From: Methylotenera sp. | Lineage (GTDB): Bacteria > Pseudomonadota > Gammaproteobacteria > Burkholderiales > Methylophilaceae | NCBI GenBank assembly: GCA_030652995.1 | Contig: JAUSAG010000036.1 | Coordinates: 104,163 to 168,162 of the forward strand | Length of the DNA stretch: 64,000 nt | Reading direction: 5' to 3' | Shown here: positions 10,722 through 29,547 of the stretch, one piece after another | How the letters are laid out: the number at the start of each line of letters is the position of its first letter | Position numbering within the stretch: the first letter of the stretch is position 1 | The notes under the pieces: model-generated | Told to the model about the DNA's origin: nothing | Seen by the model: the letters and a program-made list of their open reading frames with translations, nothing else | The model's database searches: none | Position numbers and translations under genes: made by a program

Positions 10722-11486
10722 CTATTTATTACGAATAAATTCAATTCTTGCACCATCACTCTCGCTCAAGCTGAGTGCGGCACCTTCATTGGCGATGTCG
10801 CCGAATAACGGGTCTTCGTCATCAGCTTTGGCTTGGCTTAGATTTTTGAAATCATATAAATTAACATCAGCCAAGTGAGATGGCTCTACATTGGTAATTG
10901 CACGGAAGATATTATTGATGCGTCCAGGCTGCTCGCGCTCCCAGCTTTGCAGCATATCTTTTATTTTTTGGCGCTGCAGATTTTCTTGGCTACCACACAA
11001 ATCGCACGGGATAATTGGAAACTCCATTTGACGCGCATAGCTGGCAATGTCTTTTTCACTACAATAGGCAAGTGGGCGAATCACGATATTTTGCTTATCG
11101 TTAGTAGAAAGCTTAGGTGGCATGGCTTTCATTTTGGCGCCAAAAAACAAATTCAAAAATAGCGTTTCTACAATGTCATCACGATGATGACCTAAAGCAA
11201 TTTTGTTTGCACCAAGCGCTTTTGCTGTGGTGTAGATTACGCCACGACGTAAGCGTGAGCAAAGCGAGCAAGTGGTTTTGCCTTCAGGAATCTTTTCTTT
11301 CACGATCGAATAAGTGTCGGCTTCAACAATGCGGTAATCGATGCCTAGCTTTTCAAAGTAAGCTGGCAAAATGTCTGCAGGGAAACCTGGCTGCTTTTGA
11401 TCTAAATTCATCGCAATTAGCTTGAAGTTAATGGGTGCGCGCTCCTGTAAGGCTAGCAAAATCATGAGCATGGCGTGCGAGTCTTT
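10722..11486 (-). pseudogene. ttcA: Host ttcA, 3' portion (separated from its 5' end by the island)
   Basis: This stretch encodes the last 254 residues of tRNA 2-thiocytidine synthase, starting at the K-D-S of the PP-loop. It keeps both CxxC pairs (CSLC, CDLC) of the Fe-S site and the LGHHRDD motif. The open frame continues upstream to an ATG at 11558, but those first 24 residues (MNISFLYDF...MLIS) come from the inserted element and do not resemble TtcA: the SGG of the ATP-binding loop and the whole N-terminal domain are gone. The missing 5' part is intact at 29542-29688. Loss of ATP binding makes the fragment very probably inactive. Confidence 0.9.
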
Positions 11487-11501
11487 ACTTATTAGCATAA
11501 C
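11482..11501. other. Left attachment junction of the island
   Basis: Core TCTTT (11482-11486) is continuous with host ttcA to its left. The element side reads TCTTTACT followed by the arm TATTAGCATAAC (11490-11501). Joined to the right end, this would give two inverted 12-bp arms around an 8-bp spacer, the usual geometry of a tyrosine-recombinase core site. Confidence 0.75.
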
Positions 11502-11609
11502 TCCATAAGCTAATCTTGAAAAAAATACTATAAAATCATATAGAAAACTAATATTCATGTTTACATAATAATATAAATGTTAACTTTATGCACATTTTAA
11601 GCTCAATCT

Positions 11610-11828
11610 TTACATTAGTTGTGATTTAAAGTTTACTTGAAATATTAATTTCTTATTCTTGCACTGACCTAATGCAAATACATCCCATCTAGCAACAGGT
11701 ATCCAGTGTAATGGTCCCATATATGCAAAACCCTTGCCGAATTCTAGCCTAAATTTGGATATGTAATCTATAAGCCCAAGTTCAACATCTCGTTCAACGG
11801 CATCATGGGCAATTGTGCAACGGCGCAT
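11610..11828 (-). pseudogene. Fragment resembling a YhcG/DUF1016 nuclease C-terminal region
   Basis: A 72-residue open frame contains ERDVELGLIDYISKF and GKGFAYMG, which resemble the start of the DUF1016 (PDDEXK-type, YhcG-like) nuclease domain. The similarity stops after about 35 residues, and none of the catalytic part follows. It is best read as a decayed fragment inside the island's left end; a real small gene is less likely. The putative start lies inside a 12-bp inverted repeat. Confidence 0.3.
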
Positions 11829-11839
11829 TGCACAATTGC
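11809..11839. repeat. Perfect 12-bp inverted repeat
   Basis: GCAATTGTGCAA and TTGCACAATTGC are separated by the 7 bases CGGCGCA. No T-run follows on either strand, so it is not a typical terminator. It could be an operator, a recombinase-binding site or a relic of an older insertion. Confidence 0.7.
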
Positions 11840-11895
11840 AAGATCACTCCAAAAATTAACTACCATCAAAATTGATAATTAAAACTAATCCGGCA

Positions 11896-11930
11896 GAAAT
11901 ATCCGCATAGCTGACGGCCAGTTTAAATTT
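11896..11930 (+). repeat. Dispersed island repeat, copy 1
   Basis: This segment (GAAATATCCGC...CTGACG..CAGTTT) matches 17786-17820 in about 25 of the first 29 positions, in the same orientation, and more weakly 20032-20056. It lies 58 bp beyond the 3' end of the minus-strand SMR gene. Confidence 0.6.
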
Positions 11931-11987
11931 GAAATACACTACAACGGCCTCAAGTGAACGCTGCAGTTAACCTTGATTTTTACAGTT

Positions 11988-12317
11988 TCAGTGTCCTGAA
12001 CTGGAAAAAACATTCATCGTTACGACCCCAGCGATAATTAGACCAATGCCAATAAGTGCGGGAATATCTAGTTTCTGACCAAAAAATCCCCAGCCAATAA
12101 TAGTAATCAGAACAATTCCTACGCCTGACCAAATTGCATAAGCAATACCGACTGGAATCGAGCGTAAGGTTATTGAAAGAAAGTAAAATGCTATTCCATA
12201 TCCTATTATCACAACCGCAGAAGGAATTAGTTTCGTAAAGCCTTCACTTGACTTCAATGCCGCAGTAGCAATGGTTTCTGCAACAATTGCTGCACCTAAT
12301 ATTAACCATTTGTTCAT
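11988..12317 (-). CDS. Small multidrug resistance (SMR) family transporter
   Basis: The 109-residue protein has four membrane helices and the SMR signatures: the conserved membrane glutamate at residue 14 ([14 protein letters not shown]) and the [11 protein letters not shown] motif. The family works as antiparallel or paired dimers exporting cationic drugs, guanidinium-type metabolites or polyamine-like compounds in exchange for protons. Similarity extends to both EmrE/QacE and guanidinium exporters, so the substrate is not assigned. It is island cargo, a gene type often carried by mobile elements. Confidence 0.9.
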
Positions 12318-12455
12318 CTAATTTCCCAATATAAAATACATCTCAAGGCGTCAGATTATGACTTTATTATTGTATGCTGCACAGTCTAGACAAAAGCTTT
12401 AGCTTGTGGGCAAATTGCAGCACAAGTCGCATGCATCATTCATGTAACATCTCAA

Positions 12456-12489
12456 AATATAAAAGGCCGGAATTCCGGCCTTTTATATT
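12456..12489. terminator. Perfect 34-bp palindromic terminator
   Basis: A 15-bp stem (AATATAAAAGGCCGG and its complement) surrounds a 4-base centre AATT. It lies 11 bp beyond the stop of the minus-strand dehydrogenase gene, with a T-rich tail on that strand, so it probably ends that transcript. Confidence 0.85.
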
Positions 12490-12499
12490 GTTTTATCAA

Positions 12500-14455
12500 T
12501 TAACGAATTGAAATTGGAACCAATGTCCCGGCCTTCATATCGGGCATCAGTATCGTTCTACCATCGGCTGATAAGTTAATGTCTGCTGACGACTGATTTC
12601 CTTCGCTAATCAATTGCGGAGTCGCCTTGGGTTCGCTTAATTGCCAAACTTTGCCGCCAGCCCAATCGCTGATGTAGAGTACACCGCTAGGATCACGTAT
12701 CAAACCATCAGCAGCACCAAAGCCTTGATTCAGCAGCGTCAAATTAGACTTAACTTTGCCGTCTTGTTCAGAATAGTCTATGCGGAACAGTTTTCCTGTA
12801 CCAAAGTCTGCAACCAATAATGCATTGGGGCCATCCATTAATAAACCATTTGGGCGTTTTATGCCGGATTTATCGCTGATGAGTTGCACCACTTGCCCTT
12901 GAGACGTAATCTTGTAAATGGCAGCATGTTTACCATTATCTTCCCCGCTATCGGATACATACACGTTGCCTAAGCCATCGATTTCAATGTCATTCAGAAA
13001 AACTGGTTTGCTCTGGAAATCTGATGGTTTTGCAATTACCGTTTTATTACCTTGCAGATCAATACGTACTACCTGATCCATATCTGCAACATACAGCTGA
13101 TTATTGAACATATCGATTCCTTTTGGATCATTCAAACCATCAGCTAATGTAGATTTTGAACCGTTAGCATTAATCACAGTCACCTTACCGTCACCGCTCT
13201 TGCCGAATTCACCGATTTCCGTAACAAATATACGCCCATCCGGATGGGCAATCGAAGACTCAGGCATTTTCAAACCCGTTACAGTGCCAAGTGCTGTAGC
13301 AGTAGCTGGTGCTTTAGCGTCAGCATTACCTTCGCCATAACTAACGCGGTAAATCACGCCGTTGTAGTCATCAGATACCAGCAATGAGCCATCAGGCAAT
13401 TGCAGCACATCCGTTGGGCGTCCCCAGATTTCGCCATTATTCAACCAGCCATCAATGAACACCTCAGTTCCAGTCACGCGATGCTGGGCGTCGAATTTCA
13501 CCTTCATCAGTTGATAACCAACCGGCTTGCTGCGATTCCATGACCCATGTTGGGCGACAATTGCGCTACCTTGGTATTCCTCAGGAAACTGTTTACCACT
13601 ATAGAATTTAAAACCCAGGTTGGCGCTATGCGCCTGAAACTCAGCTGCCGGAAAAACGACATTCTTTGGTGGTGTTTTATCTTTCAACTGCGGGGAACGA
13701 GCGTCACCGCCAGCGTAGTAAGGAAAACCGAAGTGCTGGCCTGCTTTGACCGCTGCGTTTAATTCGTCATGCGGGATATCGTCGCCCATCATGTCGCCGC
13801 CGTTATCGGTGAAATAGACCACATTGGTGTCTGGCTGAAAATCGACACCTACCGAGTTGCGAACGCCTTTTGCAAAGGTTTCTACGTTACTGCCATCCGG
13901 ATCCATTCTGATGATAGAACCTTCAATCCCTTTTGTTTCACAAATATTGCAAGGCGCACCCACTGTTACATATAGCTTGTTGTCCGGACCGAAAGCGATA
14001 TATCGCCAGCCATGGTGAGCCTTATTCGGCAGCTTGTCATAGATGACTTCGCGCATTTGCTTGAATGGCAGTGTCAAATCAAAATCTGGCGCAGCATAAC
14101 GTGTAATACGGTTCTGTTCTGCCACGTACAGGTTACCCTTGTACATCGCCACACCATTACCAATGTTCAAATCGTCTAATATGGTAATTACTTGATCTGC
14201 TTTGTGATCTTTGTTCTTGTCAACGACTGCATAGACCTTATTGCCACGCGTGCCGACATATATATTTCCATTGGTACCTAATGCCATTTGGCGTGCATCT
14301 GGCACATCCGCATAGACTTCGATTTTAAAGCCTGCAGGGACGTTTAATTTACTTAAATTCGCCTGGGCATCTGCTGCTTCAGCATAAGTATTTAGCGATA
14401 CCGCACTAAATGCTGTTCCCAGCATGAATGCAAGTAGGTTTAATTGCACTTTCAT
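12500..14455 (-). CDS. Secreted sorbosone-dehydrogenase-like double beta-propeller protein
   Basis: The 651-residue protein has a signal peptide (residues 1-26, cut near TYAEAADA). The first part (about 32-375) resembles PQQ-dependent sorbosone/pyranose dehydrogenases: LNVPAGFKIEVYADVPDARQ, HHGWRYIAFGPDNKLYV, a CNIC pair, and AQHGSWNRSKPVGYQL. The second part (about 390-650) is a chain of NHL/SMP-30-like propeller blades (DPKGIDM, LNDIEIDGLGNVYVSDSG). The protein is thus probably a periplasmic sugar or alcohol oxidoreductase with an extra propeller; use of PQQ is inferred from the family. It is transcribed divergently from an AraC regulator, with an orphan pqqA in the same island. Confidence 0.8.
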   Translation of the reverse strand: MKVQLNLLAFMLGTAFSAVSLNTYAEAADAQANLSKLNVPAGFKIEVYADVPDARQMALGTNGNIYVGTRGNKVYAVVDKNKDHKADQVITILDDLNIGNGVAMYKGNLYVAEQNRITRYAAPDFDLTLPFKQMREVIYDKLPNKAHHGWRYIAFGPDNKLYVTVGAPCNICETKGIEGSIIRMDPDGSNVETFAKGVRNSVGVDFQPDTNVVYFTDNGGDMMGDDIPHDELNAAVKAGQHFGFPYYAGGDARSPQLKDKTPPKNVVFPAAEFQAHSANLGFKFYSGKQFPEEYQGSAIVAQHGSWNRSKPVGYQLMKVKFDAQHRVTGTEVFIDGWLNNGEIWGRPTDVLQLPDGSLLVSDDYNGVIYRVSYGEGNADAKAPATATALGTVTGLKMPESSIAHPDGRIFVTEIGEFGKSGDGKVTVINANGSKSTLADGLNDPKGIDMFNNQLYVADMDQVVRIDLQGNKTVIAKPSDFQSKPVFLNDIEIDGLGNVYVSDSGEDNGKHAAIYKITSQGQVVQLISDKSGIKRPNGLLMDGPNALLVADFGTGKLFRIDYSEQDGKVKSNLTLLNQGFGAADGLIRDPSGVLYISDWAGGKVWQLSEPKATPQLISEGNQSSADINLSADGRTILMPDMKAGTLVPISIR

Positions 14456-14612
14456 ATTTACTCCTTGTTATCGAAACTAGACCAATAGTAGTTTACTGAG
14501 GCAATGAGATTTTTTGAATACATAAAACTCCTTATTTATTGCCTAAAACTATTTATAAATATGAATTTATAGTTGATATAATATAGTTTTGTAACCTAAA
14601 TATATAATTTTT
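14456..14612. promoter_or_regulatory. Divergent control region of the dehydrogenase and araC genes
   Basis: The 157-bp AT-rich space between the divergent dehydrogenase and AraC-type regulator genes must hold both promoters and, by family habit, the regulator's binding sites. An ACTCCTTGTT element just upstream of the dehydrogenase start (14460-14469, plus strand) gives a ribosome-binding site AAGGAG on the minus strand. No individual operator can be named. Confidence 0.5.
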
Positions 14613-15566
14613 ATGACTAAGATGAACTGCTGGCAGGAGTCCGATCAAAGCGACATATGCGACCTCCTTAAGCGTTTGGCGCCGACTGAAGGCTTTACTC
14701 TCACCCCTTTAGAAGGTGTGAAGCTCATGCGCTGGAACCGCTCTTTGCCGCGCAGTCCGGTTTTATATGAACCAAGCATCGTGGTGATTTGCTCAGGTCG
14801 TAAAATTGGTTATTTAGGTCAAGAAGTTTTTCATTACAACCCGCAGCATTTTTTGGTGCTGTCGGTTCCACTGCCGTTTGAAAGCGAAACGATCGCCAGT
14901 GAAGAAGAGCCTTTAATGGGTATTTCGATTCGCATTAATATACCCATTCTCTCCGAGCTGATCTTGATGCTTGATCAAGGGTCTTCCCATTCTGAGCTTG
15001 GAACTCATGGGATGGTATCCACCCCATTGGATGCTAAGCTTTCTAATACAGTACTAAGACTGTTGCAAGCATTAACTTCGGCTAACGATACGGATATTCT
15101 TGGCCATTCAATCTTGCGGGAGATTCATTATCGGGTTTTAATCAGCAATCAAGGTGAAGCTATTCGCGCATTACTAAGCCAGCAAAATCACTTGGGTAAA
15201 ATCAGTAAGGCCTTGCGAAGGATACACTCTGATTTTGCAGATGATCTTAACGTCGCGAAACTGGCTGATGAAACCGGGATGAGTTTGGCTGCCTTTCATG
15301 CCAGTTTTAAAGCCGTGACTGCAACATCTCCAATACAATATCTGAAAACAACGCGGTTACATAAAGCCAGGTTACTCATGTTTCAAGACGGTACTTCAGC
15401 AGCGCATGCTTCCGCTAAAGTTGGCTATGAGAGTCCTTCACAATTTAGCCGTGAATTTAAACGACTGTTTGGTAAAACCCCAATGGAAGATATGGCTGCT
15501 ATGCGAGAATCACTCATCACATTACCCTTCGACCCGGCTTCTAAATATGTAACCGTTCAGCCGTGA
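14613..15566 (+). CDS. AraC-family transcriptional regulator
   Basis: The 317-residue protein has an N-terminal cupin-like sensing domain of the AraC_N (PF06719) type (residues 15-180, with RSPVLYEPSIVVICSGRK) and two C-terminal helix-turn-helix motifs (about 205-300: LNVAKLADETGMSLAAFHASFK and GYESPSQFSREFKRLFGKTP). Members of this subgroup commonly control an adjacent divergent oxidoreductase gene, here the dehydrogenase-like gene at 12500-14455. The inducer is unknown. A hairpin at 15691 may end the transcript. Confidence 0.88.
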   Translation: MTKMNCWQESDQSDICDLLKRLAPTEGFTLTPLEGVKLMRWNRSLPRSPVLYEPSIVVICSGRKIGYLGQEVFHYNPQHFLVLSVPLPFESETIASEEEPLMGISIRINIPILSELILMLDQGSSHSELGTHGMVSTPLDAKLSNTVLRLLQALTSANDTDILGHSILREIHYRVLISNQGEAIRALLSQQNHLGKISKALRRIHSDFADDLNVAKLADETGMSLAAFHASFKAVTATSPIQYLKTTRLHKARLLMFQDGTSAAHASAKVGYESPSQFSREFKRLFGKTPMEDMAAMRESLITLPFDPASKYVTVQP

Positions 15567-15690
15567 AGAGGAGCTTTGTCCCATATTCTGCTTAATCCGC
15601 AAAGCGGACTACCAAAACTCAAACTTTGTGGACTTTTAGGAAGAGTGGACAGAATCTTGGTGCTTTACAACTTATATCAACAGACAAACT

Positions 15691-15716
15691 AAACCCGATC
15701 AAAGATGGTCGGGTTT
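15691..15716. terminator. Probable bidirectional terminator
   Basis: AAACCCGATC and GGTCGGGTTT form a 10-bp stem with one G-U pair. It lies between the convergent ends of the AraC gene and the NTF2-like gene. Confidence 0.65.
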
Positions 15717-15754
15717 ATCATTTTGCAGAATGCTGCACTAGTCTCTTGAGGAGT

Positions 15755-16213
15755 TTAATTGCCGGCGTTCCAAATGTGAGTGCGAGCTACCCACTTACCA
15801 TTTCCATCTTTCTTAAAAACACTAGTCGTAATGCCGCTGTAAGTGACTGTTACACCATCCTTTTCAGCACCACTAGCGCTCCACTTTGCGACCTGATATA
15901 GCGTTTCATCATCACCATCAACTGTGACGATCTCCAATTGATGATTCTTCAAACCTGCTTCAAAAAAACTTTTAAATAAATTCTGAATCTCTGCACGTCC
16001 AGTCAGAACTTTGCCGTTGCCTGGGGAAAGTACAGCGTTTTCTGCATATAAACTCGCAAGTGAACTCGCATCTGAATTATTAAAGGCTTTATTCCAAGTA
16101 TTGTTTAATGACTCTACCGTTGTTTTGGCAGTCATTTCTTCAGCAAACGCAATACTTGTTGTTACAAGGCTAAAAGTTATTATCGCGAGTGTGTTTTTAA
16201 TCAGTGATTTCAT
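15755..16213 (-). CDS. Secreted SnoaL/DUF4440-like (NTF2-fold) protein
   Basis: The 152-residue protein has a clear signal peptide (residues 1-24, ending SIAFAEE). The remainder is an NTF2-like fold: LNNTWNKAFNNSDASSLASLYAENAVL, TGRAEIQNLFKSFFEAGLK, and a final VARTHIWN strand. This SgcJ/EcaC or DUF4440 group has varied, mostly unknown functions; no catalytic residue can be named. It sits alone within the island cargo and converges on the AraC gene. Confidence 0.8.
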   Translation of the reverse strand: MKSLIKNTLAIITFSLVTTSIAFAEEMTAKTTVESLNNTWNKAFNNSDASSLASLYAENAVLSPGNGKVLTGRAEIQNLFKSFFEAGLKNHQLEIVTVDGDDETLYQVAKWSASGAEKDGVTVTYSGITTSVFKKDGNGKWVARTHIWNAGN

Positions 16214-16675
16214 ATGGGGTAATCCTTAATTGAAGTGTAAAAAACCATGAAATAAATATTTTTTCATGTCGCTTGCAGCTAATTTGTCCAAGCATCATTA
16301 ATAACAGAACTTAGCAGTCATCAACTGAAATATGAAGATGATCCAAACTCTAGTTAGGCTCATTATAGTTAGCTGGCTAACTAAATGCAAATTTAATCTT
16401 TCAGCTTATGTATTAATTTTCTAAGGATTTGAAGCAATATATCTCTTGCCATTACTTAGCAGTTATTAATGTTTTGATAGCACGCATTAAAAAATCGCTA
16501 GGGACTGGAGTAGGTCGGCTTAAATGATAAGTTTGCTAAATTTTCTCTCGCTCATGATTTTACTGAGGGATCAATCATGAGTACCAATAGTGCTGTATTT
16601 TGAGGTGAGCGCATAATGAACTGGATCGAAAAGATATATCGTCAGTTCAAAACAGATAACACTTTGGAGAATATT
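16214..16675. other. Intergenic region upstream of pqqA with two inverted repeats
   Basis: I see no supported gene in these 460 bases. Two perfect inverted repeats stand out: TAGTTAGC-TG-GCTAACTA at 16366-16383, and CTCATGATT (16551-16559) with AATCATGAG (16573-16581). Either could be an operator: the first 153 bp upstream of the NTF2-like gene, the second 95 bp upstream of pqqA. Confidence 0.5.
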
Positions 16676-16747
16676 ATGTGGACAACACCAGCAGCGACTG
16701 AAATGCGTTTTGGCTTTGAAGTAACAATGTACGTCATGAATAAGTAA
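16676..16747 (+). CDS. pqqA: PqqA, peptide precursor of pyrroloquinoline quinone
   Basis: The 23-codon frame encodes MWTTPAATEMRFGFEVTMYVMNK in two halves: MWTTPAATEMR then FGFEVTMYVMNK. It matches PqqA throughout, including the Glu and Tyr (E-V-T-M-Y, residues 15 and 19) that PqqE crosslinks to make PQQ. A ribosome-binding site GGAGA at 16666-16670 sits 5 bases before this ATG, favouring it over an in-frame ATG at 16616 that would add 20 residues. A terminator follows at once, so the gene is monocistronic, with no pqqBCDE nearby. It may supply extra precursor for the periplasmic quinoprotein-like enzyme in the same island. Confidence 0.88.
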   Translation: MWTTPAATEMRFGFEVTMYVMNK

Positions 16748-16766
16748 TTCCTCAGCGGAATTCACA

Positions 16767-16788
16767 AAAGGGAGCTTATGCTCCCTTT
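16767..16788 (+). terminator. Terminator of pqqA
   Basis: A 9-bp stem AAAGGGAGC/GCTCCCTTT with loop TTAT lies 20 bp after the pqqA stop codon. Confidence 0.8.
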
Positions 16789-16904
16789 GTCATTTCTATG
16801 ACATATTAGATTTATATAGTTATCACTATATGCAAACTTTTTTTGAAGTTACCCACTTCAAACTTTTATAACAAAGAAATCAAAAGTTTCTTCAGGGGAT
16901 TTAA

Positions 16905-17069
16905 ATGAATACATATCCAAACTATAGAGATGAAAACCGCGATATTACGCTGTTTGAGACTAACAAGTTCCTACGCATACTCTTTACAGTAATGTTTGTT
17001 ACTGCAGTATTTATTGTACCCGTAGTAACTGCAATCCATTTTCTAGCATCTCCATTGTTACAGGCATAG
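16905..17069 (+). CDS. Possible small single-pass membrane protein
   Basis: This 54-codon frame starts MNTYPNYRDENRDITLFET and continues into one strongly hydrophobic helix (about residues 22-46, FLRILFTVMFVTAVFIVPVV). An AGGGGA at 16894-16899 is well placed for this ATG. The charge pattern suggests the N terminus stays in the cytoplasm. It follows pqqA after its terminator. I do not recognise a family; coding potential rests on the ribosome-binding site and amphipathic layout only. Confidence 0.45.
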   Translation: MNTYPNYRDENRDITLFETNKFLRILFTVMFVTAVFIVPVVTAIHFLASPLLQA

Positions 17070-17272
17070 TTAATTTTCATAGCAATATAGATCGCAGCTG
17101 ACGTCTCCGATTGATTAGTTTTACTAATCATAGGCATTGAAACAACCAATTGGATTAATTGATAAATGAAGCCTAATATGTTTTCTAACAAAACATCAAT
17201 TTAAGCTAACAATGAACTCATGGACAAAATTTTATCGATGGAAAACAAGTATCACTCGCTTTCTTAGGATAG

Positions 17273-17494
17273 ATACGCATATTTCTCTTAACAAGAAAAC
17301 GACTTATCACAAGAAGATTGCTGAAGAACAAAGTTGGCTTGGGATTGGTTAATGTGCGAGTTCTAGATAATAATCTGGTAAATGAAATCGTTACATCAAA
17401 TTTTTCTCACGTTCGTATATCTAATGCTTACAAAAACTTAGGAGAGTCTTATGGACTGGGTAACAGATTGCTATTAAGTGCAAGATTTAAATAA
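17273..17494 (+). pseudogene. Possible C-terminal remnant of a TonB-dependent receptor
   Basis: The frame has no proper start but encodes a segment (VGLGLVNVRVLDNNLVNEIV) and ends in NRLLLSARFK, alternating hydrophobic and polar residues with a terminal aromatic position, as in the last beta-strands of outer-membrane receptors. It could be what is left of a receptor gene deleted from the island. Similarity is weak and length short, so this is tentative. The remainder up to 17785 shows no supported gene. Confidence 0.3.
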
Positions 17495-17785
17495 GGTAGC
17501 AGAGACTCTCTTGTTTAATAAAAGGTTGTTCTATTCAGGAAAAAACACTCATTAGTGCCTCGCGTATTCATGGTATATAGACTTAGATACACAACAGCTG
17601 TCACTGTTGGAATGATGTAATCGCAACATGTTTTCGACATTAATTCGCATGTTTGAGTATTTTTGCCTAAGGGTGCTACCGATTATTATTTTAAAGTAGC
17701 CACAAATTAGTATTTCTGAGTCATGCATTTCTAAATAAACTACTGCATAGCATTGGCGTTTAATTACTATCGCTTACAGATGGCT

Positions 17786-17820
17786 GAAATATCCGCTTAA
17801 CTGACGTTCAGTTTTATTTA
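17786..17820 (+). repeat. Dispersed island repeat, copy 2
   Basis: Matches 11896-11930 (GAAATATCCGC...CTGACG..CAGTTT) in the same orientation. Like copy 1 it lies a short way (43 bp) beyond the 3' end of a minus-strand cargo gene. Confidence 0.6.
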
Positions 17821-17863
17821 AACATCGCCAGACATCAACCCAAAGTAGACCTTCAATATAAAG

Positions 17864-18526
17864 TTAAATAGCAATATCTAGTATTGGAACTGGATCATTT
17901 GCACCATTTGGAACACATGCAGCAACTGATGCAGTGATTCTGCCTGCAGTAATATCGCCATCATCTAATTTTGAATCAATAGTGCGTACTGTGTCGCATG
18001 ATAGGTTATTTATCTGTATTTCGTTTATTACAGATACTGGCAGGGAGCCTGCAGCTCTACGAGCTGTAATAAATACATCAGCCACATTGGAATTATTGCT
18101 TCTGGTGAATATCCCATTAATCGTGCCTTTAATCATTCCAGCACGCACTAGATGCTCAGCTACACACCCGACTTCTGTGGCTGTATCAATGCGGCCATTG
18201 CCTATTGATGCTGTATTTACTGCAAGGCTGCAACCAGCACTTACATTAGGAATATCATCACCGGCCAGAGGTAAGTCACCAGGTAAATAGTGATACTTAT
18301 TTTTAAAGCTGGAAGCTGCATCATTCAAGTCTTTAATTAAAGCAATGGTATCTGTAGTTTCTGAATTACCTATTAATGAGCTGCTGCGTGATGCTACGAA
18401 TCCTAAGATTAAGCCAATTATCATTACGACAATGGCCATTTCTATTAATGTGAATGCTTTGAAAGCTTTCAATTTATTTAACGATGATTTCTTTAACAAA
18501 AATCGTGACTGATAATGCAGCGCCAT
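17864..18526 (-). CDS. Type IV pilin-like protein (pseudopilin)
   Basis: The prepilin-type signal AFTLIEMAIVVMIIGLILG (from about residue 24) has the conserved Glu at +5 and a long hydrophobic helix; the cleavage site is A-F instead of the usual G-F. The rest is a globular part with several cysteines (GCSLAV, GCVAEH, LSCDTV, AACVP) that could form disulfides. The ATG at 18526 overlaps the upstream 62-residue gene by 53 bp; TTG codons at 18499 or 18472 are alternative starts giving shorter leaders. Probably a minor pseudopilin made together with the gene at 18678-19772. Confidence 0.75.
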   Translation of the reverse strand: MALHYQSRFLLKKSSLNKLKAFKAFTLIEMAIVVMIIGLILGFVASRSSSLIGNSETTDTIALIKDLNDAASSFKNKYHYLPGDLPLAGDDIPNVSAGCSLAVNTASIGNGRIDTATEVGCVAEHLVRAGMIKGTINGIFTRSNNSNVADVFITARRAAGSLPVSVINEIQINNLSCDTVRTIDSKLDDGDITAGRITASVAACVPNGANDPVPILDIAI

Positions 18527-18662
18527 AAGACATAAGTGCTGCCCATAGTGCTAACTTAACTAGACCAATGGTTGTTAGCAATACACTACTTGATAGGGCG
18601 AGTACCCAAATTGAAAGCATGAAAAATGCTGGCGTTAAAATTAGTGCTAATTTGAAATTCAT
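18474..18662 (-). CDS. Small two-helix membrane protein
   Basis: The 62-residue protein has two hydrophobic segments (about residues 4-25 and 28-55) and a basic end (VKEIIVK). It sits between two pseudopilin genes on the same strand, 15 bp after the first and overlapping the second, so it is probably part of the same transcript. I do not recognise a family. Confidence 0.55.
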   Translation of the reverse strand: MNFKLALILTPAFFMLSIWVLALSSSVLLTTIGLVKLALWAALMSYGAALSVTIFVKEIIVK

Positions 18663-18677
18663 TGAATAACTCCAAGT

Positions 18678-19772: not shown

Positions 19773-20031
19773 ATTACCCCTATAAAACTGACCTAGATTT
19801 GAAGCACACATTTATCTACTAATATTATGCAGTAATTTTAAATAACGTTGCAAACTAGTTCTTCCTGTAGCAATTTCGGTAAATTAAAGGCAAGTATGAA
19901 TATCTGGTGCACTACATCGTTATCAAAAAATAATATTGATATAAATAGCTAAGGACAACTATTGGCTGGCTGCTAATATTGACGTGCCAAATCTGTATGG
20001 GACTTTGTCCCGCTAATTTGCCGAAGGCTTA

Positions 20032-22906: not shown

Positions 22907-23748
22907 ATCAATACAGTTTTAATAAGTTACAAAAAAGAATCCGTAGGGAAACTGGTAAAGCGATAATAGACTTTAACATGATTGAAGATGGAGATTTAGT
23001 CATGGTGTGTCTATCTGGAGGTGCTGATAGTTACACCATGTTGGATACGTTGGTGTATTTTTCTAAAATTGCCCCTATTAATTTCCAAGTAATTGCTGTA
23101 AATCTGGATCAGAAGCAACCCGGTTTTCCTGAAGAAGTTTTACCAAATTACTTAAAAAGTATTGGAGTAGATTTTAGAATTGTTGAACAAGATACATATA
23201 GCGTTGTAAAAGATAAAATACCAGAAGGTAAAACTACATGTTCATTGTGTTCTAGATTACGCAGAGGTATTCTTTATAAAACAGCAAAAGATTTAGGCGC
23301 CACTAAAATAGCACTTGGGCATCATAGGGATGATATTTTACAAACGCTATTATTAAATATGTTTTATGGTGGCAGTTTGAAAGCGATGCCGCCAAAATTG
23401 CGATCAGATAATGGAGAAAACGTTGTAATAAGACCTTTGGCTTATTGCGCAGAAAAAGATATAAAGAAGTACTCTGAGATGATGAGTTTTCCGATAATCC
23501 CATGCAACCTATGTGGATCACAACCAAATCTACAAAGACAGGTTATGAAAGAACTTTTAGTTAAGTGGAATAAAGAACATCCTGGAAGAGTTGAAAACAT
23601 GTTTAGAGCAGTTTGCAACGTAGCACCTTCGCATCTTCTGGATAGAGAAATGTTTGATTTTTCAACGTTCACTTCGAAATCTAAAGTTGCATACGATACA
23701 GATATGGTTGTGAAAGAAGATTTTAAAACAATTAACTTTGTAGATTAG
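22903..23748 (+). CDS. ttcA: Element-borne TtcA-type tRNA 2-thiocytidine synthase
   Basis: The complete 281-residue PP-loop protein carries both CxxC pairs (CSLC, CNLC) that bind the Fe-S cluster, LGHHRDD and the KAMPPKL segment. TtcA thiolates cytidine 32 of some tRNAs. The ATP loop reads SGGADS (residues 38-43, bases 23014-23031), where the host gene has SGGKDS; PP-loop enzymes tolerate variation at this position (other families use SGGVDS or SGGLDS), so activity is plausible. It is clearly diverged from the interrupted host copy (my estimate is somewhat over half identical) and more A+T rich. It overlaps the upstream helicase gene and converges onto the recombinase operon with a 4-bp overlap. 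Confidence 0.92.
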
Positions 23749-24170
23749 CCGGTTTGATTTTTCGTATTGTCTGGTAAAGGGTCATTTAACAAGTGATTAC
23801 CTTTTTCAATCAGAGAAACGTTGTATATCAACTGTGTATGCCTATGCAATAGGGTTTCATATTTAGTAGTTAGCTCTGCTAGTTCAGATTTAAGGCTTTG
23901 GATATTTTGTTCATATTCATTGATAGATTTTGGATTGGTTTTATGTGCATTACGACTTTCTTTTAGACGCCTTTTCGCTTCGTTAAACGATATGTGAATG
24001 TTCTCGTTTCGTGAAAGTGATTGGCGGGACCAGGTTGAGTCACCCTTTTTAAGAGTCTTTTCCAAATGCACCCTTAGGTCCTCCCATGATAGTAATTTAC
24101 TAGCTGGCCATTTACGCAATATCTGAAGTATTTCGTTTTCGTCTTTTATGGAAATCTTCTTAGCACCCAT
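23745..24170 (-). CDS. Small coiled-coil protein ending the recombinase operon (TnpC-like)
   Basis: The 141-residue protein is mainly helical, with a basic N-terminal half ([19 protein letters not shown]) and a heptad-patterned coiled coil at about residues 84-115 ([20 protein letters not shown]). In Tn554-type and related elements a small protein of this kind (TnpC) follows two recombinase genes and modulates transposition; GmtX of gamma-mobile-trio islands is another possible relative. It starts 2 bp after the 808-residue recombinase gene. The assignment is by position and layout rather than clear motif. Confidence 0.6.
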
Positions 24171-24172
24171 AT

Positions 24173-26599
24173 CTATTCCTTGCTACATTCACAATTTTCG
24201 ACTCTTAGTTTATTGGTTAATTCTGAAACGCTGAATGAACCAGTAGGCGCAGAAAAAGTAACGATAGTACCAACTTTCACAGACGCATCATTTTCAATAG
24301 CAAGTATTTGCTCACAACGTTCTAATGTGTCCTTGAATTGTTGTAAGTATTTCTTAACTGGGAGGTGCCCATTCCCTTCGGCTATTTTATAGTTAGCTTG
24401 TTCAATCATGTGAATGGAGTAATTCCGCATGTCATGAATTATTGGTAATCTTTTTTTATCACCTTTTTGCCACACTGATTTATTGCACCGCATGCAGTCA
24501 CCGAACATCTCGCATGGATTAATTGACCAATCACTTCTACACCCTCCTACTTCAGTGATGTGCTTTGGCGCCGCATTTTCATATAGAAATATTTTTCGTG
24601 CTATAACTTTTACTTTTGGAGGAGCTTCTAATGCGACTGGGCCGATTACGTTAAAATCAACATCAGGATCAAAAGTTTCTATAGATTGTGAAATTATTTC
24701 GTGTGGGGTGCGAAGGTCGTAATGTTCTGATTGCTTTCCATTTTTCCTACCGGCTAATTCATCGATAAATTTTTCATTTGCACCAGCTAATAATGCTTCT
24801 GTTTGATGATACTTTCTAGTTTTATGTAGAGTTATCGATGGGTATGATCCATCGCTCAATCGAATATTAAGATTGAAAAATAATTTAGCAGGTCCTTGGT
24901 TATATTGGCTAAGCCAAGCATTAATGACTTGTCCTGAGAGTGCCTCAGGACGCCACCATTGAGCTATCTCGTTGCCTGTGCCAATGCCTTTTGTATTATC
25001 TGGTAAGAATGAAACTAAAAGTGCGTTATCAAGTTTTGTCGATTTATCTTTTGAGGTGTACGGCCAATGCATAAATTTGCTTTGTTTAAATTGCATTAAT
25101 AAAAAATTATATAGGTCTTTAGATTTGATATAGCAACCTGGTTTAAGCGAGGCGCTAAAAATAGGATGAGATATTTTTAGATGGCTGTGTCCTTTTCCAA
25201 TATACTTTCTGGCCATTACGCAAGTTATATATTTAGTCTTATCAATATTTTGAGGCATATTTATGCTTAACTTATATTTTTGACTAGCTTTCTCGAACTC
25301 GTCAATCCGAATGTAAGGAGCGTTATGTTTTCTAAAATTTTTGCTTACAAGATTAGAAATGTCATTAGGTTCTTTTATAAAAATATGTACTGATAGTTTT
25401 GCTAATCGACTTGGGAAGTAATAGTAGGGAGAGTCTGGGCATGCTAGAACAAAAAGTACATCTTCTTTTGATAAATACTCCTTATTAAAAATATCTCTTA
25501 GGTGTAAGGGGATATATAGCTCGTTTACTTCTGAAAATGAGTTTGGAAATTTCGCTAGATAAAATTTAAATGCTTCATGTGCACCTTGTGAAAAATGCAG
25601 TATGTTTTCAAACATTTCCTTGGCTAAGTTTGATAGCTTGTGAGGTATCGGCAGGTTCTGTGATTCATCAATTTTAGGGCGCGTTAATCTAATTCGAGTA
25701 CGCTCTTTATTATCTTGGTCACTATAAAGTGCATCTCTACTTAATAGTAATGTTTCTGATATTCTCATTGAGACAGTTGTAAAAGAAAGCCCACAAATAG
25801 AAGCCATAAAGCTTGTCTTGCTTATTCCGCCATCTATATCAAGAGATTTGAAATAGGCTAAGCCAACGGCAGCAAGTTCCTCATTAGATATTCGTGATGA
25901 GGCTCTTTGATTAAATTCACTATCATCAACAGCGATAGCTTTTTTGCGCGATTTAGCTTGTATATCGGATACGAAAGAGAATGGTTTGTCTAGAAGATTA
26001 AATCCTTTGCCAGAAAATCTGAACGTCTTGGTGTGGTGTCCAGACTGTAACATTCCAGCAAGAGTTTCTAGTTCTTTGCCGGTGTCATACTTGATGCCTT
26101 GGCTGTAATTACTCTCTTGAATACATCTTAAAGCTTGCTGGAAGGTGATGAGTTTTATTTGGTTAAGATTATTGCTGTCGCAATTTAATACTCGCAGCGC
26201 TTTTTCAAGATAAATTAAAGCCAGTGAGATGCATTTTGGTTTTGACCTTAGGTTTCTGTAGAAAATCATTACGTTGATATAAGCTTTTGCAAACAATAAG
26301 TAGTTTTTGCTTGTGATGAAGTTATCTGCGTCAAGCAATCTTGTTGATAGTTTAGTCGTAGATAGTAAGCCATCTTTTAGAAACTCTTGTTTGAGAAAAA
26401 ATGATTTTGTTGAGTCGTGACTGTGAGGAATGAAACGTGATGAGTACTCAAAATATGGAAGTTCTTTTTCAAAGGTATCTGCATGGATGTTGTTAATATT
26501 TGCCGTACCAAATGGTAAACCCCAGTTGATGAATTTTTCAAACCTATCTAGAACATCCAGCTCGGAATGGACAAGGAATAAAGGTAAATTCTCAGCCAT
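24173..26599 (-). CDS. Large tyrosine-recombinase-family protein (third of three)
   Basis: The 808-residue protein has a long N-terminal region of unknown fold and a recombinase-like domain with MRISETLLL (Arg 279), HKTRKYHQT (His 592, Arg 595) and EHY (Tyr 627), so the catalytic pattern appears kept although stretched. Next is a cysteine cluster (C687, C696, C702, C705: GGCRSDWSINPCEMFGDCMRC then KGDK) typical of the long integrases of multi-recombinase elements. It overlaps the upstream recombinase gene by 8 bp. It could be the specificity or partner subunit of the complex. Confidence 0.75.
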   Translation of the reverse strand: MAENLPLFLVHSELDVLDRFEKFINWGLPFGTANINNIHADTFEKELPYFEYSSRFIPHSHDSTKSFFLKQEFLKDGLLSTTKLSTRLLDADNFITSKNYLLFAKAYINVMIFYRNLRSKPKCISLALIYLEKALRVLNCDSNNLNQIKLITFQQALRCIQESNYSQGIKYDTGKELETLAGMLQSGHHTKTFRFSGKGFNLLDKPFSFVSDIQAKSRKKAIAVDDSEFNQRASSRISNEELAAVGLAYFKSLDIDGGISKTSFMASICGLSFTTVSMRISETLLLSRDALYSDQDNKERTRIRLTRPKIDESQNLPIPHKLSNLAKEMFENILHFSQGAHEAFKFYLAKFPNSFSEVNELYIPLHLRDIFNKEYLSKEDVLFVLACPDSPYYYFPSRLAKLSVHIFIKEPNDISNLVSKNFRKHNAPYIRIDEFEKASQKYKLSINMPQNIDKTKYITCVMARKYIGKGHSHLKISHPIFSASLKPGCYIKSKDLYNFLLMQFKQSKFMHWPYTSKDKSTKLDNALLVSFLPDNTKGIGTGNEIAQWWRPEALSGQVINAWLSQYNQGPAKLFFNLNIRLSDGSYPSITLHKTRKYHQTEALLAGANEKFIDELAGRKNGKQSEHYDLRTPHEIISQSIETFDPDVDFNVIGPVALEAPPKVKVIARKIFLYENAAPKHITEVGGCRSDWSINPCEMFGDCMRCNKSVWQKGDKKRLPIIHDMRNYSIHMIEQANYKIAEGNGHLPVKKYLQQFKDTLERCEQILAIENDASVKVGTIVTFSAPTGSFSVSELTNKLRVENCECSKE

Positions 26600-28142
26600 T
26601 TTGTTCTTTGATACTAGAAATTACAGAACTGACGGCATCAATAAGGTAGTCATCTCTTGTAATAGCCTCAAGAGGAAGTTTCAGTTTTATTAATTTTTTC
26701 TTTTTGGAAAGTAAGCTATCCAGAACGGCCTGATGCGCCCCATCTTTAAATGCTTCAAAACGCGGACAAATATAACATCCAAATGGGGTAAGTACATTGC
26801 ATGGCTTAGTCGAGCAAGATCCAACATCTTTATCGATATCTGGATCTAAAATCCGGTGGTCTAGATCAGGATTTGTTGAGAAGTTTTTGTTAATTACTTT
26901 ACCTCTGAATGCTGATAGTAAGTTCTCATGATGGCTTGATAATTGATTTTCATAATTAACGAAAGCCTCTTCAGTTAAATTGACATAATGTGTTAGTGAT
27001 CCAGTGGACGTTTGAAATCCAGCCCTTGCTAAAACCTCTAGAGGCGCACCTAACATCGCTAAATGGGTTAGTTTCGTATGTTTAAACCTTCTAGTAAATA
27101 AGTTTAAATCTTGAGGCTCTTCATCAATACCAGCGATATATTTTCGACTATTCATGATTCGGCTAGTAATATTAATACCATTTTTGTTTACAAGAACCTG
27201 CTTTCCCGCACCTTTTCTTGCAATGCAAAATATTGGTAAAGTACGTTCTGGTTCTTTTTTTGTAATACTCGATATGTATTTTATATGCTCTACTACCGCT
27301 CTACCAATTGGCTCAGAAAGTGTGTATTCCATCATGTATTCTCGCGCCGGGGTGGCTTTTTGTTTAACTATGGGAACATTAACTTGAACTTTAACCAAGT
27401 TGCCATTTATATCCATATCAATTTTTAGGTCTCCAAATTCTAATAACTGTAATTGCGACGGTCGCATTGCTTCAGAAATAATTAATCTCCACATTAAATA
27501 ATCTTGTGGATTAAATTCACCTGATATGTATAAGCTTTCAACATTTGTAAGGATATTTCTGGTTTGCTGCATACTGAATGGACGCTCTTGCGGATTGGAA
27601 TTTTGGATGTTTATAGTGCTTTTGGGCTTGGGTGATTTTGATGATTTTATATAGCTCTTAAGGTCTAAATCAATTCCTGGGATATTGAGACCAATCCAAT
27701 ACTTTATAAACGATCTAAGCAACTTCTGTGATGAGGGAGATTTATCTTGGTTAAACCAATTAAACATTGCTAAATTGATACAGGATATTTGGTTTGGGAC
27801 TAATTCTTTTATGACTCTTATAAACATCGAGAATTGATTAATCCAACGTTTAACTGTCGATATTTTTCTTCTTCCATTTAATGCATGAATGACGACATAG
27901 TAAAAAATGCTACTGGTAGCTTTCGTTAAACCAACTGATAATTGGTTTAGTCTTATACTTGCGTCACCAGCATCTCCCTTTAATGTCATAAGATCGAAGT
28001 TGACATCAATTAACTTACCGCTATCAATCGGTCTGATTCTTTTAGGGAAATCTTCAGGAATAAGTTCATTGGAATAAACTATAAATGTGTCATATCCGCT
28101 AAATTTATTTGAGGCTGTCAAGGATGCGGTCTCTCTCTTCAA
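26592..28142 (-). CDS. Tyrosine recombinase (second of three) with C-terminal Cys cluster
   Basis: The 516-residue protein has an N-terminal core-binding region (about 70-170), then the catalytic domain: first Arg in EAMRPSQ (227), box II RRFKHTKLTH (351-360) and tyrosine in LTHY (386). At the position of the second catalytic arginine there is Lys 354, so cleavage activity may be weakened or lost. A C-terminal CSTKPC...GCYICPRF cluster (C443, C448, C456, C459) resembles TnpB of Tn554-type elements. It overlaps the first recombinase gene by 38 bp and the third by 8 bp, so the three are one translation-coupled unit. Confidence 0.85.
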   Translation of the reverse strand: MKRETASLTASNKFSGYDTFIVYSNELIPEDFPKRIRPIDSGKLIDVNFDLMTLKGDAGDASIRLNQLSVGLTKATSSIFYYVVIHALNGRRKISTVKRWINQFSMFIRVIKELVPNQISCINLAMFNWFNQDKSPSSQKLLRSFIKYWIGLNIPGIDLDLKSYIKSSKSPKPKSTINIQNSNPQERPFSMQQTRNILTNVESLYISGEFNPQDYLMWRLIISEAMRPSQLQLLEFGDLKIDMDINGNLVKVQVNVPIVKQKATPAREYMMEYTLSEPIGRAVVEHIKYISSITKKEPERTLPIFCIARKGAGKQVLVNKNGINITSRIMNSRKYIAGIDEEPQDLNLFTRRFKHTKLTHLAMLGAPLEVLARAGFQTSTGSLTHYVNLTEEAFVNYENQLSSHHENLLSAFRGKVINKNFSTNPDLDHRILDPDIDKDVGSCSTKPCNVLTPFGCYICPRFEAFKDGAHQAVLDSLLSKKKKLIKLKLPLEAITRDDYLIDAVSSVISSIKEQNG

Positions 28143-29397
28143 TTAGCTCTGCAGCTTGATCAATGATGTGTCTTTGGCTATATCTGGAAGGCATTGTGGA
28201 GGTGTTAGCCCATCGGCCACGTTGAATTAAAATGCTTCTTACATCTTTACCTTTTTCATGAGCAATGTTAGCTATCTCAGTTAAGTGCGTGTGCCTCAAA
28301 GAATGTGGTGTAAACCATGTTGGAAATTCTTTTAACGATTTGAGTTTTGAAATAATTCTATTCAAGTTGCGCTGTGAAATTGGTTCTCCAATACTTGGAC
28401 CACTTTGGCAAACAAATAGATAAGGATGTTCTTTTATATTAGAGCTTAATGAAATCGCAAGACGTCTTTCATTTGTAATATATTTGATTAAATCCGCGGT
28501 TAAGTTCTTGCTAACGGCTAGATCCCCAGAAAGAGTCTTAGATAAAGGCTCTTTAGTCCTCGGATCTGCATTATCATTTGGTTTATGTCTAACTCTTATT
28601 ATGTTTATAAATTTGCCAGGACGTATCTCGTAGTTATACTTAATGTCTGCGCAAGTTACTTTAAGGCATTCGCCTGCTCTCAGTCCAGTTTCATAAAGAA
28701 ATCTGGCAATTAATTTATCCCTATTACCATGATTGGTATTAGGAAAAATACTGTTAGAGCTAATTGCTTGTAAAAAAGTCGCTGTTTGATTTGAATCCAA
28801 AGAATACACTGGTGCAGGTTTTTTATCTGACTTATAGTTTTTTTCAAAGGCTTCGTAAATTATATTTTTATATTTTTCACTTTTAATAAGAGATTTGTCA
28901 TCTACATTCAGCGCACCTTCAATAAAGTCTTGAGTAAGCCATATTAAATAGTTGCATAAATTTCGTAAACGAGCGTTAGATGTGGAAATGTCTACTAAAA
29001 TACCAGATGGAATGCTATGAAGCTTAGGGTTGTCAATTGAACGAATTCTGGCTAACTCTTTAGAAGAGAAGTCGCACCAACCACTGAATTCATCAATTTC
29101 TCTTCTTGTTAATGCAAGTGAATTATTCTTCACCCGTGTTTCTGGTGCTATCCAATTAGGGTTTCTTGATTTTTTTATTAGTGACCATTCTAAGTAGAAT
29201 GCCAAATCTCTAAGGATTGCAAGGTGAGTATTATGGCTTTTTTGGCCTAAATTTCGATAGACATATAAAGTGGGCAACTCACATAGTAGACCGCTGCGAG
29301 TATCTAAAAGTACGGCTCTTCTGACTGAACGTTTGTTAACTCCAGAGCCGATATCTTCGATAATAATTCTTGTTTGCGCTGTAAGGTTTTCAATCAT
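28105..29397 (-). CDS. Tyrosine recombinase/integrase (first of three)
   Basis: From ATG 29397 the product is 430 residues; a TTG at 29427 would add ten residues rich in Cys and Leu. An N-terminal SAM-like DNA-binding region (about 55-165) precedes a complete catalytic domain: Arg 240 (TGLRAGE), HSLRHTH (His 365, Arg 368), Trp 396 in GRW in place of His III, and nucleophile Tyr 406 (SRYSQRH). It is thus the most likely strand-cleaving subunit of the element. It is the first gene of the minus-strand operon and begins about 145 bp inside the right end of the island. Confidence 0.88.
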   Translation of the reverse strand: MIENLTAQTRIIIEDIGSGVNKRSVRRAVLLDTRSGLLCELPTLYVYRNLGQKSHNTHLAILRDLAFYLEWSLIKKSRNPNWIAPETRVKNNSLALTRREIDEFSGWCDFSSKELARIRSIDNPKLHSIPSGILVDISTSNARLRNLCNYLIWLTQDFIEGALNVDDKSLIKSEKYKNIIYEAFEKNYKSDKKPAPVYSLDSNQTATFLQAISSNSIFPNTNHGNRDKLIARFLYETGLRAGECLKVTCADIKYNYEIRPGKFINIIRVRHKPNDNADPRTKEPLSKTLSGDLAVSKNLTADLIKYITNERRLAISLSSNIKEHPYLFVCQSGPSIGEPISQRNLNRIISKLKSLKEFPTWFTPHSLRHTHLTEIANIAHEKGKDVRSILIQRGRWANTSTMPSRYSQRHIIDQAAELIEERDRILDSLK

Positions 29398-29530
29398 TAA
29401 ATGTTTACATAAAATACATATGCTCAAATATATTATAAGGCATAATTTTATTTTTTTTAATATAAATTTTATTTAAACTTAACATCATGATTATATTATA
29501 TTTATTTATATTAAAGATTACATTGTTGTT

Positions 29531-29547
29531 GTTGTGCTAATATCTTT
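29531..29547. other. Right attachment junction of the island
   Basis: The element arm GTTGTGCTAATA (29531-29542) abuts the core TCTTT (29543-29547), which continues into host ttcA. It is the inverted counterpart of the left arm, with one mismatch in twelve. Confidence 0.75.

What the first reader, a model, noticed from the sequence alone, without database searches (positions are those of the whole stretch)
11482..29547. An 18-kb element interrupts the tRNA-thiolation gene ttcA and carries a complete replacement ttcA
The 5' 49 codons of the host ttcA (29542-29688) and its 3' 254 codons (10722-11486) lie on the same strand on the two sides of the island, and join in frame within the shared TCTTT core to give a normal-length protein. 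Between them the element carries an intact, diverged ttcA (22903-23748), right against its recombinase operon. Seen: both halves, the junctions and the second gene. Inferred: insertion kills the host copy and the element restores the function, so a conserved housekeeping gene can be a tolerated target. Most elements that insert in genes restore only a gene end; carrying a whole divergent substitute is unusual. I do not know a named family with this habit.
Basis: partly seen in the sequence, partly recalled or inferred. Interest (0 to 1): 0.95.

Follow-up and report, generated by a model that had tools for sequence, protein, structure and literature searches.

The report
Islands that replace genes they break
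An 18-kb mobile island sits inside the active-site codons of the tRNA-modifying gene ttcA and carries a complete ttcA of its own, coded differently exactly where the island inserts, which likely does the broken gene's job; related islands break ttcA or the DNA-repair gene recJ and bring a whole substitute too, so a mobile element can apparently use a conserved housekeeping gene as its landing site.

Summary
Observation confirmed. An 18,053-bp element (11490-29542) splits host ttcA within its PP-loop codons (SGGK|DS) and carries a full-length divergent ttcA tail-to-tail with its recombinase operon. By organisation it is a GInt (ginABCD), a known kind; the habit of hitting a catalytic motif and bringing a whole substitute I did not find in print. 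The same 18,053 bp, without a mismatch, sits in the same site in Methylotenera mobilis 13 and a Methylophilus MAG, whose flanks are 74-80% identical. Diverged versions do the same; in a one-contig genome of another family (G1103) the carried copy is the only full-length TtcA although ginA is gone. A close relative has the empty site. The carried TtcA reads SGGADS; the 54 such rows of a tree form one clade apart from the hosts; dN/dS is 0.015-0.035. Two other GInts (GinB 21-29% identical) split recJ at two catalytic motifs and carry complete RecJs, 83% identical to each other; a third recJ motif is hit by another element type. Seventeen GInts found beside ssb showed no such break. Function and target immunity are inferred; ttcA itself is missing in some relatives.

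The parts
11490..29542 (.). GInt element between its terminal inverted repeats, 18,053 bp
   Evidence: 0 mismatches of 18,053 in G478 and G447, 0 of 14,082 in G508; flanks 74-80% identical
29543..29688 (-). 5' part of host ttcA (49 codons, ends in SGGKD); 29543-29547 is the core AAAGA copy
10722..11486 (-). 3' part of host ttcA; 11482-11486 is the second AAAGA core copy
29531..29542 (-). gin-side terminal repeat TATTAGCACAAC
11490..11501 (+). distal terminal repeat TATTAGCATAAC, inverted relative to the gin-side copy
28105..29427 (-). ginA: tyrosine recombinase, 440 aa
   Evidence: PF00589 50.5 bits
26592..28142 (-). ginB: tyrosine recombinase, 516 aa, overlaps ginA
   Evidence: NF041502 172.7 bits, below its 350-bit cut-off; 103 homologues
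24173..26599 (-). ginC: large third recombinase-like protein, 808 aa
   Evidence: no profile match; aligned with ginC of other operons at 17-25%
23745..24170 (-). ginD: small protein, 141 aa, end of operon
   Evidence: position; 27% match to the fourth gene of the G414 operon
22903..23748 (+). carried ttcA (SGGADS), 281 aa, stop codon overlapping that of ginD
   Evidence: NF007972 470.7 bits; clade; dN/dS
11988..22906 (.). cargo: SMR efflux gene, sugar dehydrogenase-like, AraC-type regulator, SgcJ-like, two N-methylation pseudopilin-like ORFs, lone HsdR-like
11490..11987 (.). distal AT-rich end (GC 0.33; whole element 0.39)

Best explanation
The element is a GInt that integrates inside the codons of the ATP-binding PP-loop motif (SGGK|DS) of ttcA, splitting the host gene, and carries a full-length TtcA that likely supplies the lost tRNA C32 thiolation. 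The DNA of a catalytic motif varies little between species, so it is predicted to be a broad landing site. The GinABCD proteins are predicted to recombine the circular element with that site within the AAAGA core. The carried copy is recoded there (SGGADS, GCT in place of AAA), which would also make it a poor target for the element's own recombinases. Precise excision would restore the host gene. If the element decays in place, the substitute can become the only copy, as seen in G1103. Shown: split, empty sites, identical element in different hosts, linkage of ttcA to the operon, one clade of SGGADS proteins, purifying selection, recurrence with recJ. Inferred: enzymatic activity, fitness effect, immunity, circular form.
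For: Same site, same operon, carried ttcA beside it: window, G478 (M. mobilis 13), G447, G508, G494, G483; in G506 the contig ends inside ginB. 18,053 bp identical across hosts whose flanks are 74-80% identical. Empty ttcA in 12 of 12 fetched loci, between sdr and topA in 11. In 187 Methylophilaceae the carried-type TtcA (93-100%) is listed for 6 of the 7 genomes with a strong GinB hit and for 0 of 180 others. The 54 SGGADS rows of a 161-row tree form one clade, SH-aLRT 95. dN/dS of carried ttcA 0.015-0.035; ginA, ginB and ginD 0.11-0.21. G1103, one 6.55-Mb contig: host ttcA ends at SGGK, its 3' remnant matches from residue 91-98 on, ginA and the start of ginB were not found, carried TtcA is the only full-length one. 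recJ split with a full carried RecJ in G526 and G489.
Against: No activity, transcript or circle was measured, and I did not scan for a promoter of the carried gene; about 20 bp upstream are shared by three elements. Several members are the same element, so independent cases are few: four diverged ttcA versions and two recJ GInts. Between window and G494 the synonymous divergence of ttcA (0.69) exceeds that of ginA, ginB and ginD (0.19-0.32), so ttcA and gin have not always travelled as one piece. ttcA is not universal: of 187 genomes 5 have no match and 16 only weak ones as expected of TilS (best E from 4.5e-13 to 7.7e-4; G380, one contig, among them), and laboratory E. coli lives without it (deletion strain in PMC4632033), so disruption need not be costly. 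G507, G459, G465, G405 and G383 have only partial or weaker best TtcA matches without a strong GinB hit; whether these are contig breaks or splits without a substitute was not resolved. Two in-frame stops lie in ginC of G494. Two TtcA homologues whose contig lengths coincide with GinB contigs carry K, not A (P0134, P0204; short contigs).
Confidence: 0.8

Rival explanations
1. Addiction first: the element breaks a conserved gene and holds the only working copy, so cells that lose the island by imprecise deletion lose TtcA. The substitute exists mainly to lock the island in, not to soften the insertion.
For: Carried copy is the only full-length TtcA in the window genome and in G1103, where it outlasted ginA. 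Known GInts often carry addiction modules (PMC5385486).
Against: Precise excision by the same recombinases would restore the host gene, a weak addiction. GInts beside ssb persist without a substitute seen. It predicts the same anatomy, so it is not excluded and may act together with replacement.
Confidence: 0.1
2. The carried TtcA is ordinary cargo with another role (for example other tRNAs), and its presence in an island that hits ttcA is a coincidence of descent.
For: About 58-69% identity to host TtcA; K to A change in the PP-loop; ttcA and gin differ in synonymous divergence between window and G494.
Against: Next to ginD in three elements with different neighbouring cargo, and beside the gin remnant in G1103; SGGxDS core and both CxxC motifs kept; two recJ islands repeat the rule with another gene; the only full TtcA in G1103.
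Confidence: 0.06
3. The host gene still works: the 278-aa ORF started by the element's end makes an active TtcA.
For: The in-frame start is conserved in G483.
Against: That product lacks SGG of the PP-loop and 47 residues; 10 of 72 bases of the leader differ between the two elements and 6 of 24 residues, so it may simply be end DNA kept for recombination.
Confidence: 0.02
4. Assembly or binning artefact.
For: Several carriers are MAGs.
Against: G478 (M. mobilis 13), G483 and G1103 (one contig each) show it; junctions are continuous with species-specific flanks.
Confidence: 0.01

Closest known systems
[quoted passage not shown] Bardaji et al. 2017, PMC5385486; called Tn6571 family in PMC10121019)
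   Same: Operon order and gene sizes, operon at one end, cargo starting at the ginD stop, AT-rich other end, strict site specificity, spread between species.
   Different: [quoted passage not shown] Here the catalytic motif is hit and a whole substitute is carried. 'ttcA' and 'replacement' do not occur in the paper's main text; its supplementary tables were not read.
Rac prophage of Escherichia coli at ttcA (PMC4632033, passages)
   Same: Same target gene.
   Different: Rac enters near the 5' end and rebuilds the N-terminus with four changed residues; the passages mention no second complete ttcA, only a pseudogene ttcC' at the other end.
e14 at icd (PMC6379469, passage); tRNA-gene islands and SXT-type ICE at prfC (last two recalled)
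   Same: An element compensates for damage to its target gene.
   Different: They restore one gene end, not a complete divergent gene.
Tn554 and strand-biased circularizing elements (SEs; PMC10214605, passages)
   Same: Several tyrosine recombinases plus a small protein, site-specific, 6-bp footprint.
   Different: Separate protein groups; no replacement gene mentioned in the passages seen.

Membership tests
GInt | ginABCD operon: three recombinase genes and a small fourth gene, same strand, at one end | tested here: met
   Four overlapping or abutting ORFs 29427-23745; ginA Pfam integrase, ginB NF041502 below cut-off, ginB and ginC alignable with ssb-type operons. Not compared with the published Gin sequences themselves.
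GInt | Cargo begins at the ginD stop codon; short AT-rich distal end | tested here: met
   ttcA and ginD stops overlap; distal 498 bp GC 0.33
GInt | Flanked by 10-17 nt imperfect direct repeats | tested here: inconclusive
   Only a 5-nt exact core (AAAGA) with a loose GNAAAGA context, plus 12-nt inverted terminal repeats
GInt | Site-specific insertion, exchanged between species | tested here: met
   Same 5' junction in 8 genomes; identical element in different hosts
GInt | Excision as a circle dependent on all four gin genes | not testable with these tools
   needs PCR and mutants
GInt | Target gene not fully inactivated (described property, not a definition) | tested here: not met
   PP-loop split between SGGKD and the rest
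tRNA 2-thiocytidine(32) synthetase TtcA (carried gene) | Equivalog profile score above cut-off, PP-loop, cysteine motifs | tested here: met
   470.7 bits vs 272; SGGADS, CSLC, CNLC
RecJ (carried genes in G489 and G526) | TIGR00644 above cut-off; DHH, DHHA1 and RecJ_OB domains | tested here: inconclusive
   G489 copy: all three Pfam domains, TIGR00644 358.6 bits vs cut-off 396.9; G526 copy 345.9 bits

The most novel reading that the evidence does not exclude
A general lifestyle: site-specific islands use the conserved catalytic-motif codons of housekeeping genes as landing sites (PP-loop of ttcA; DYDADG, DHH and LNAAGR of recJ) and pay for it with complete substitute genes. The substitutes are mobile patches: RecJs at least 83% identical to the G489 copy serve unrelated recombinase systems that hit different motifs, and substitutes can permanently displace the host gene (TtcA in G1103, possibly RecJ in G528).
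Probability: 0.65. Interest if true: 0.92.

Novelty: new variant of a known kind. Interest (0 to 1): 0.88.

Why it matters
Integration sites are thought to be chosen so that the host gene survives (tRNA 3' ends, last codons, first codons). Here the most conserved, function-critical codons are the target and the element brings a whole replacement. That would offer a mobile element a broad host range, a way to avoid its own copy, and a hold on its host. It is also a route by which conserved housekeeping genes could be displaced by foreign versions, which may explain odd gene trees of ttcA and recJ. It can be tested in harmless laboratory strains.

Tried and rejected
Gamma-mobile-trio: considered from a weak GmtY hit (21.9 bits vs cut-off 340); rejected, no GmtX or GmtZ match. 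Defence role of the gin genes: no PADLOC match. Viral origin: no relative confirmed among 52 pattern matches in viral contigs; phrogs gives generic integrase only. Plasmids: 10 records, all under 60% identity. Linkage of ginB and TtcA in contigs I could not read: 5 exact contig-length coincidences against 0.43 expected, 3 of them with SGGADS proteins (P0005/P0117, P0007/P0155, P0101/P0212). Targets of G210, G907, G894, G1163, G279, G608, G320 and G507 stayed unresolved. Splits of recJ without a carried copy were not searched for systematically. The ginC dN/dS values with G494 are invalid (two internal stops) and are not used. Papers: ten searches, open-licence library only. On checking, I lowered the main confidence from 0.82 to 0.80 because, recounted, shows ttcA missing in some relatives and the values show different ages of ttcA and gin in one pair.
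Full report
WHAT IS THERE. The window lies in a 2.66-Mb genome in 48 contigs whose relatives include Methylotenera and Methylophilus (Methylophilaceae). On the minus strand the order is sdr, 5' part of ttcA, ginA, ginB, ginC, ginD; then on the plus strand, tail to tail with ginD, a complete ttcA; then about 11 kb of cargo, an AT-rich end, the 3' part of ttcA and topA. The 5' part reads to ...CMSGGKD and stops seven codons later; the 3' part starts KDSHAML. The break is therefore inside the PP-loop motif SGGKDS. The ends share AAAGA and the element's termini are imperfect inverted repeats TATTAGCAyAAC. Own genome: TtcA matches only at the carried gene and the two host parts.

EMPTY SITES. Twelve TtcA loci fetched from other family members are all uninterrupted; topA is on one side in 12 of 12 and sdr on the other in 11 of 12 (the exception, G526, has no sdr match in the 6 kb fetched). 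G497, the closest, is 99.0% identical to the joined host TtcA, and 97% in topA and SDR. Of 187 family genomes 182 have some match to the carried TtcA at E up to 0.001, but by my count of that table 16 of these are weak (best E between 4.5e-13 and 7.7e-4), as expected of the paralogue TilS; 166 have a match better than 1e-60. So ttcA is common in the family but not universal. Partial or weaker best matches without a strong GinB hit in G507, G459, G465, G405 and G383 were not resolved.

SAME ELEMENT, DIFFERENT HOSTS. A genome scan with GinB gave four loci: JAKQIT (G508), a Methylophilus MAG (G447), Methylotenera mobilis 13 (G478) and a Methylotenera MAG (G494), all with the ttcA 5' half, the operon and the carried ttcA. 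Both host halves lie on the fetched stretches in G478 and G447. The 18,053-bp element has 0 mismatches in G478 and in G447 and 0 of 14,082 in G508, while flanks are 74-80% identical: this implies very recent transfer, in at least two genera (g1 and g286). G494 (91% in GinB) and G483 (76%, 30.0-kb island, other cargo) are diverged versions at the same site. G506 has the 5' half and ginA-ginB up to the contig end, and no carried-type TtcA was listed for it. Profile A1 found these seven strong GinB hits in 187 genomes; the carried-type TtcA (93-100%) was listed for six of the seven and for none of the other 180 (the list is cut, but from the weak end; Fisher 1.3e-10, which ignores that four are one element).

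A DISTANT CASE. Of 284 genomes of another family in the order, ten have a GinB match at E up to 1e-10 and one, G1103, has a GinB of this subfamily (E 1.2e-190). It is one 6.55-Mb contig. Host ttcA again ends at ...CMSGGK followed by TTATTGGAACAG, like the end TTATTAGCACAAG of G483. About 32 kb away lie a 3' remnant matching from residue 91-98 on, and next to it the carried TtcA (70% identical to the window's, SGGADS, 459.5 bits), then a ginB lacking its start, ginC and a ginD match; no ginA match was found, and the order differs from the window's, since ttcA here precedes the ginB remnant. The carried gene is the only full-length TtcA of that genome. I read this as an old, rearranged, immobile insertion in which the substitute has taken over.

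THE CARRIED GENE. It passes the TtcA equivalog cut-off (470.7 vs 272 bits) and keeps both CxxC motifs. Among the 120 best homologues listed 49 read SGGADS and 71 SGGKDS. In a tree of 161 rows (107 K, 54 A) the A rows form one clade with SH-aLRT 95, apart from all 36 Methylophilaceae host rows, which come from 32 genomes (quick method, several long branches). At the target the host reads GGCGGCAAAGAC (empty site) and the carried gene GGAGGTGCTGAT in three diverged elements. dN/dS is 0.015-0.035 for ttcA against 0.11-0.21 for ginA, ginB and ginD in the same three pairs. Against strict co-descent: between window and G494 dS is 0.69 for ttcA but 0.20, 0.32 and 0.19 for ginA, ginB and ginD, so one of them was probably exchanged at some time. 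About 20 bp before its start codon are shared although the upstream sequence differs, so ttcA belongs to the constant module with gin. That SGGADS is active is inferred; in related ATPases that position varies (recalled).

THE RULE RECURS WITH recJ. GInt operons with GinB about 21-29% identical to the window's exist in the family. In G526, recJ is split at the DHH motif (the two parts meet at host residues 158-162), the parts 49.5 kb apart, and a complete RecJ (591 aa, 28% identical to the host's) lies close to the 3' part. In G489, recJ is split at GDYD (residues 79-80) and a complete 591-aa RecJ lies near the 5' part. The two carried RecJs are 83% identical, the two GinBs 22%. RecJs of this type (66-100% to the G489 copy) occur in 5 of 187 genomes. 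Two more, G508 and G550, have recJ broken at LNAAGR with the carried copy 282 and 254 bp from the 3' part; in G508 the 5' part, on another contig, is followed by four genes that match no gin profile, so probably an element of another type; no recombinase was seen on the 16-kb contig of G550, and no 5' part. In the fifth, G528 (87% complete), it is the only RecJ and no gin gene was seen. I did not search the family for recJ splits without a carried copy. At the G489 target the carried RecJ reads CDHDMDG where the host reads GDYDADG; at the G526 target both keep DHH, so recoding is less clear than in TtcA. In G483 (ttcA island) and G489 (recJ island) 10.5 kb of cargo are shared at 96.4%.

CONTRAST. 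GInts beside ssb: G519, G533, G534, G497, G414, G436, G415, G441, G252, G656, G972, G1156, G964, G1171, G975, G1129, G997: 17, and G882 by gene order only. In the first ten ssb reads as an ORF of 152-186 aa; in G441 and G656 other DNA lies between ssb and ginA; in the last seven ssb was seen as a tblastn match only. One, G1069, follows a 973-aa nrdA. ssb and nrdA were confirmed by profile in one example each. In the seven regions (6.7-40 kb) a single ssb match was found, so no substitute was seen, though not all islands were read to the end. Of evaluable mid-gene GInts, seven of seven at ttcA (window, G478, G447, G508, G494, G483, G1103; four diverged versions) and two of two at recJ carry a whole substitute; G506 is not evaluable and eight GInt-like hits have no resolved target. 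In G508 and G494 the 3' half was not on the contig that holds the gin operon.

RELATION TO WHAT IS KNOWN. GInts (PMC5385486; first three of six parts read, and a term search) are defined by ginABCD; described targets are gene ends or intergenic, and the authors expect no full inactivation. They note two P. aeruginosa GInts at the ends of a duplicated ribonucleotide reductase gene, which may deserve another look. SEs and Tn554 are related in organisation (PMC10214605, passages). Rac enters near the 5' end of ttcA and changes four residues there (PMC4632033, passages). Phrase searches: 13 papers for ttcA, of which I saw passages of four, all on Rac or other prophages, the rest only as a listing; none for recJ. 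'Not described' means only these searches in an open-licence library.

VERDICT. The anatomy is certain and recurrent. Replacement of function is the most economical reading; retention of the island may be a second benefit. It is a GInt by organisation, and a new variant by strategy.

Noticed in passing
window 10722-11558; L041:5622-6458: The distal element end provides an ATG and 24 codons in frame with the host ttcA 3' half in two diverged elements (10 of 72 bases differ); the 3' half of recJ in G508 and G550 also starts from element-borne ATG codons. Unexplained.
   Followed up: partly
window 20270-22906: A lone HsdR-like protein, no hsdM or hsdS recognised among the element's ORFs; its last codons lie in the leader shared by the carried ttcA modules, as if it had been joined there.
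   Followed up: partly
L040/L041 (G483) and L098/L108 (G489): 10.5 kb of cargo including metal-efflux-like genes (named by eye) shared at 96.4% between a ttcA-GInt and a recJ-GInt.
   Followed up: partly
L165/L166 (G528:C1:252628-254385): Carried-type RecJ is the only RecJ of this 87%-complete genome, with no gin match in the 37.7 kb fetched: possible completed takeover.
   Followed up: partly
L177 (G508:C49:116116-121316): Four-gene operon (612, 786, 206, 132 aa) at a recJ break, no Pfam match for the first three; the last has a weak VPA1267-family hit. Possibly an undescribed mobile element type.
   Followed up: partly
L007:8848-11268: ginC of G494 has two in-frame stops (codons 436 and 440 of the matched stretch); that copy may be immobile or hold sequence errors.
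   Followed up: no
L202:242-4550 (G1069): GInt directly after a 973-aa nrdA, as in the P. aeruginosa GInts of PMC5385486 that sit at a duplicated ribonucleotide reductase gene.
   Followed up: no
G380, G378, G550-G552 and others: Several Methylophilaceae, one of them a single-contig genome, show no TtcA beyond a weak, TilS-like match: possible natural loss of ttcA in some lineages.
   Followed up: no
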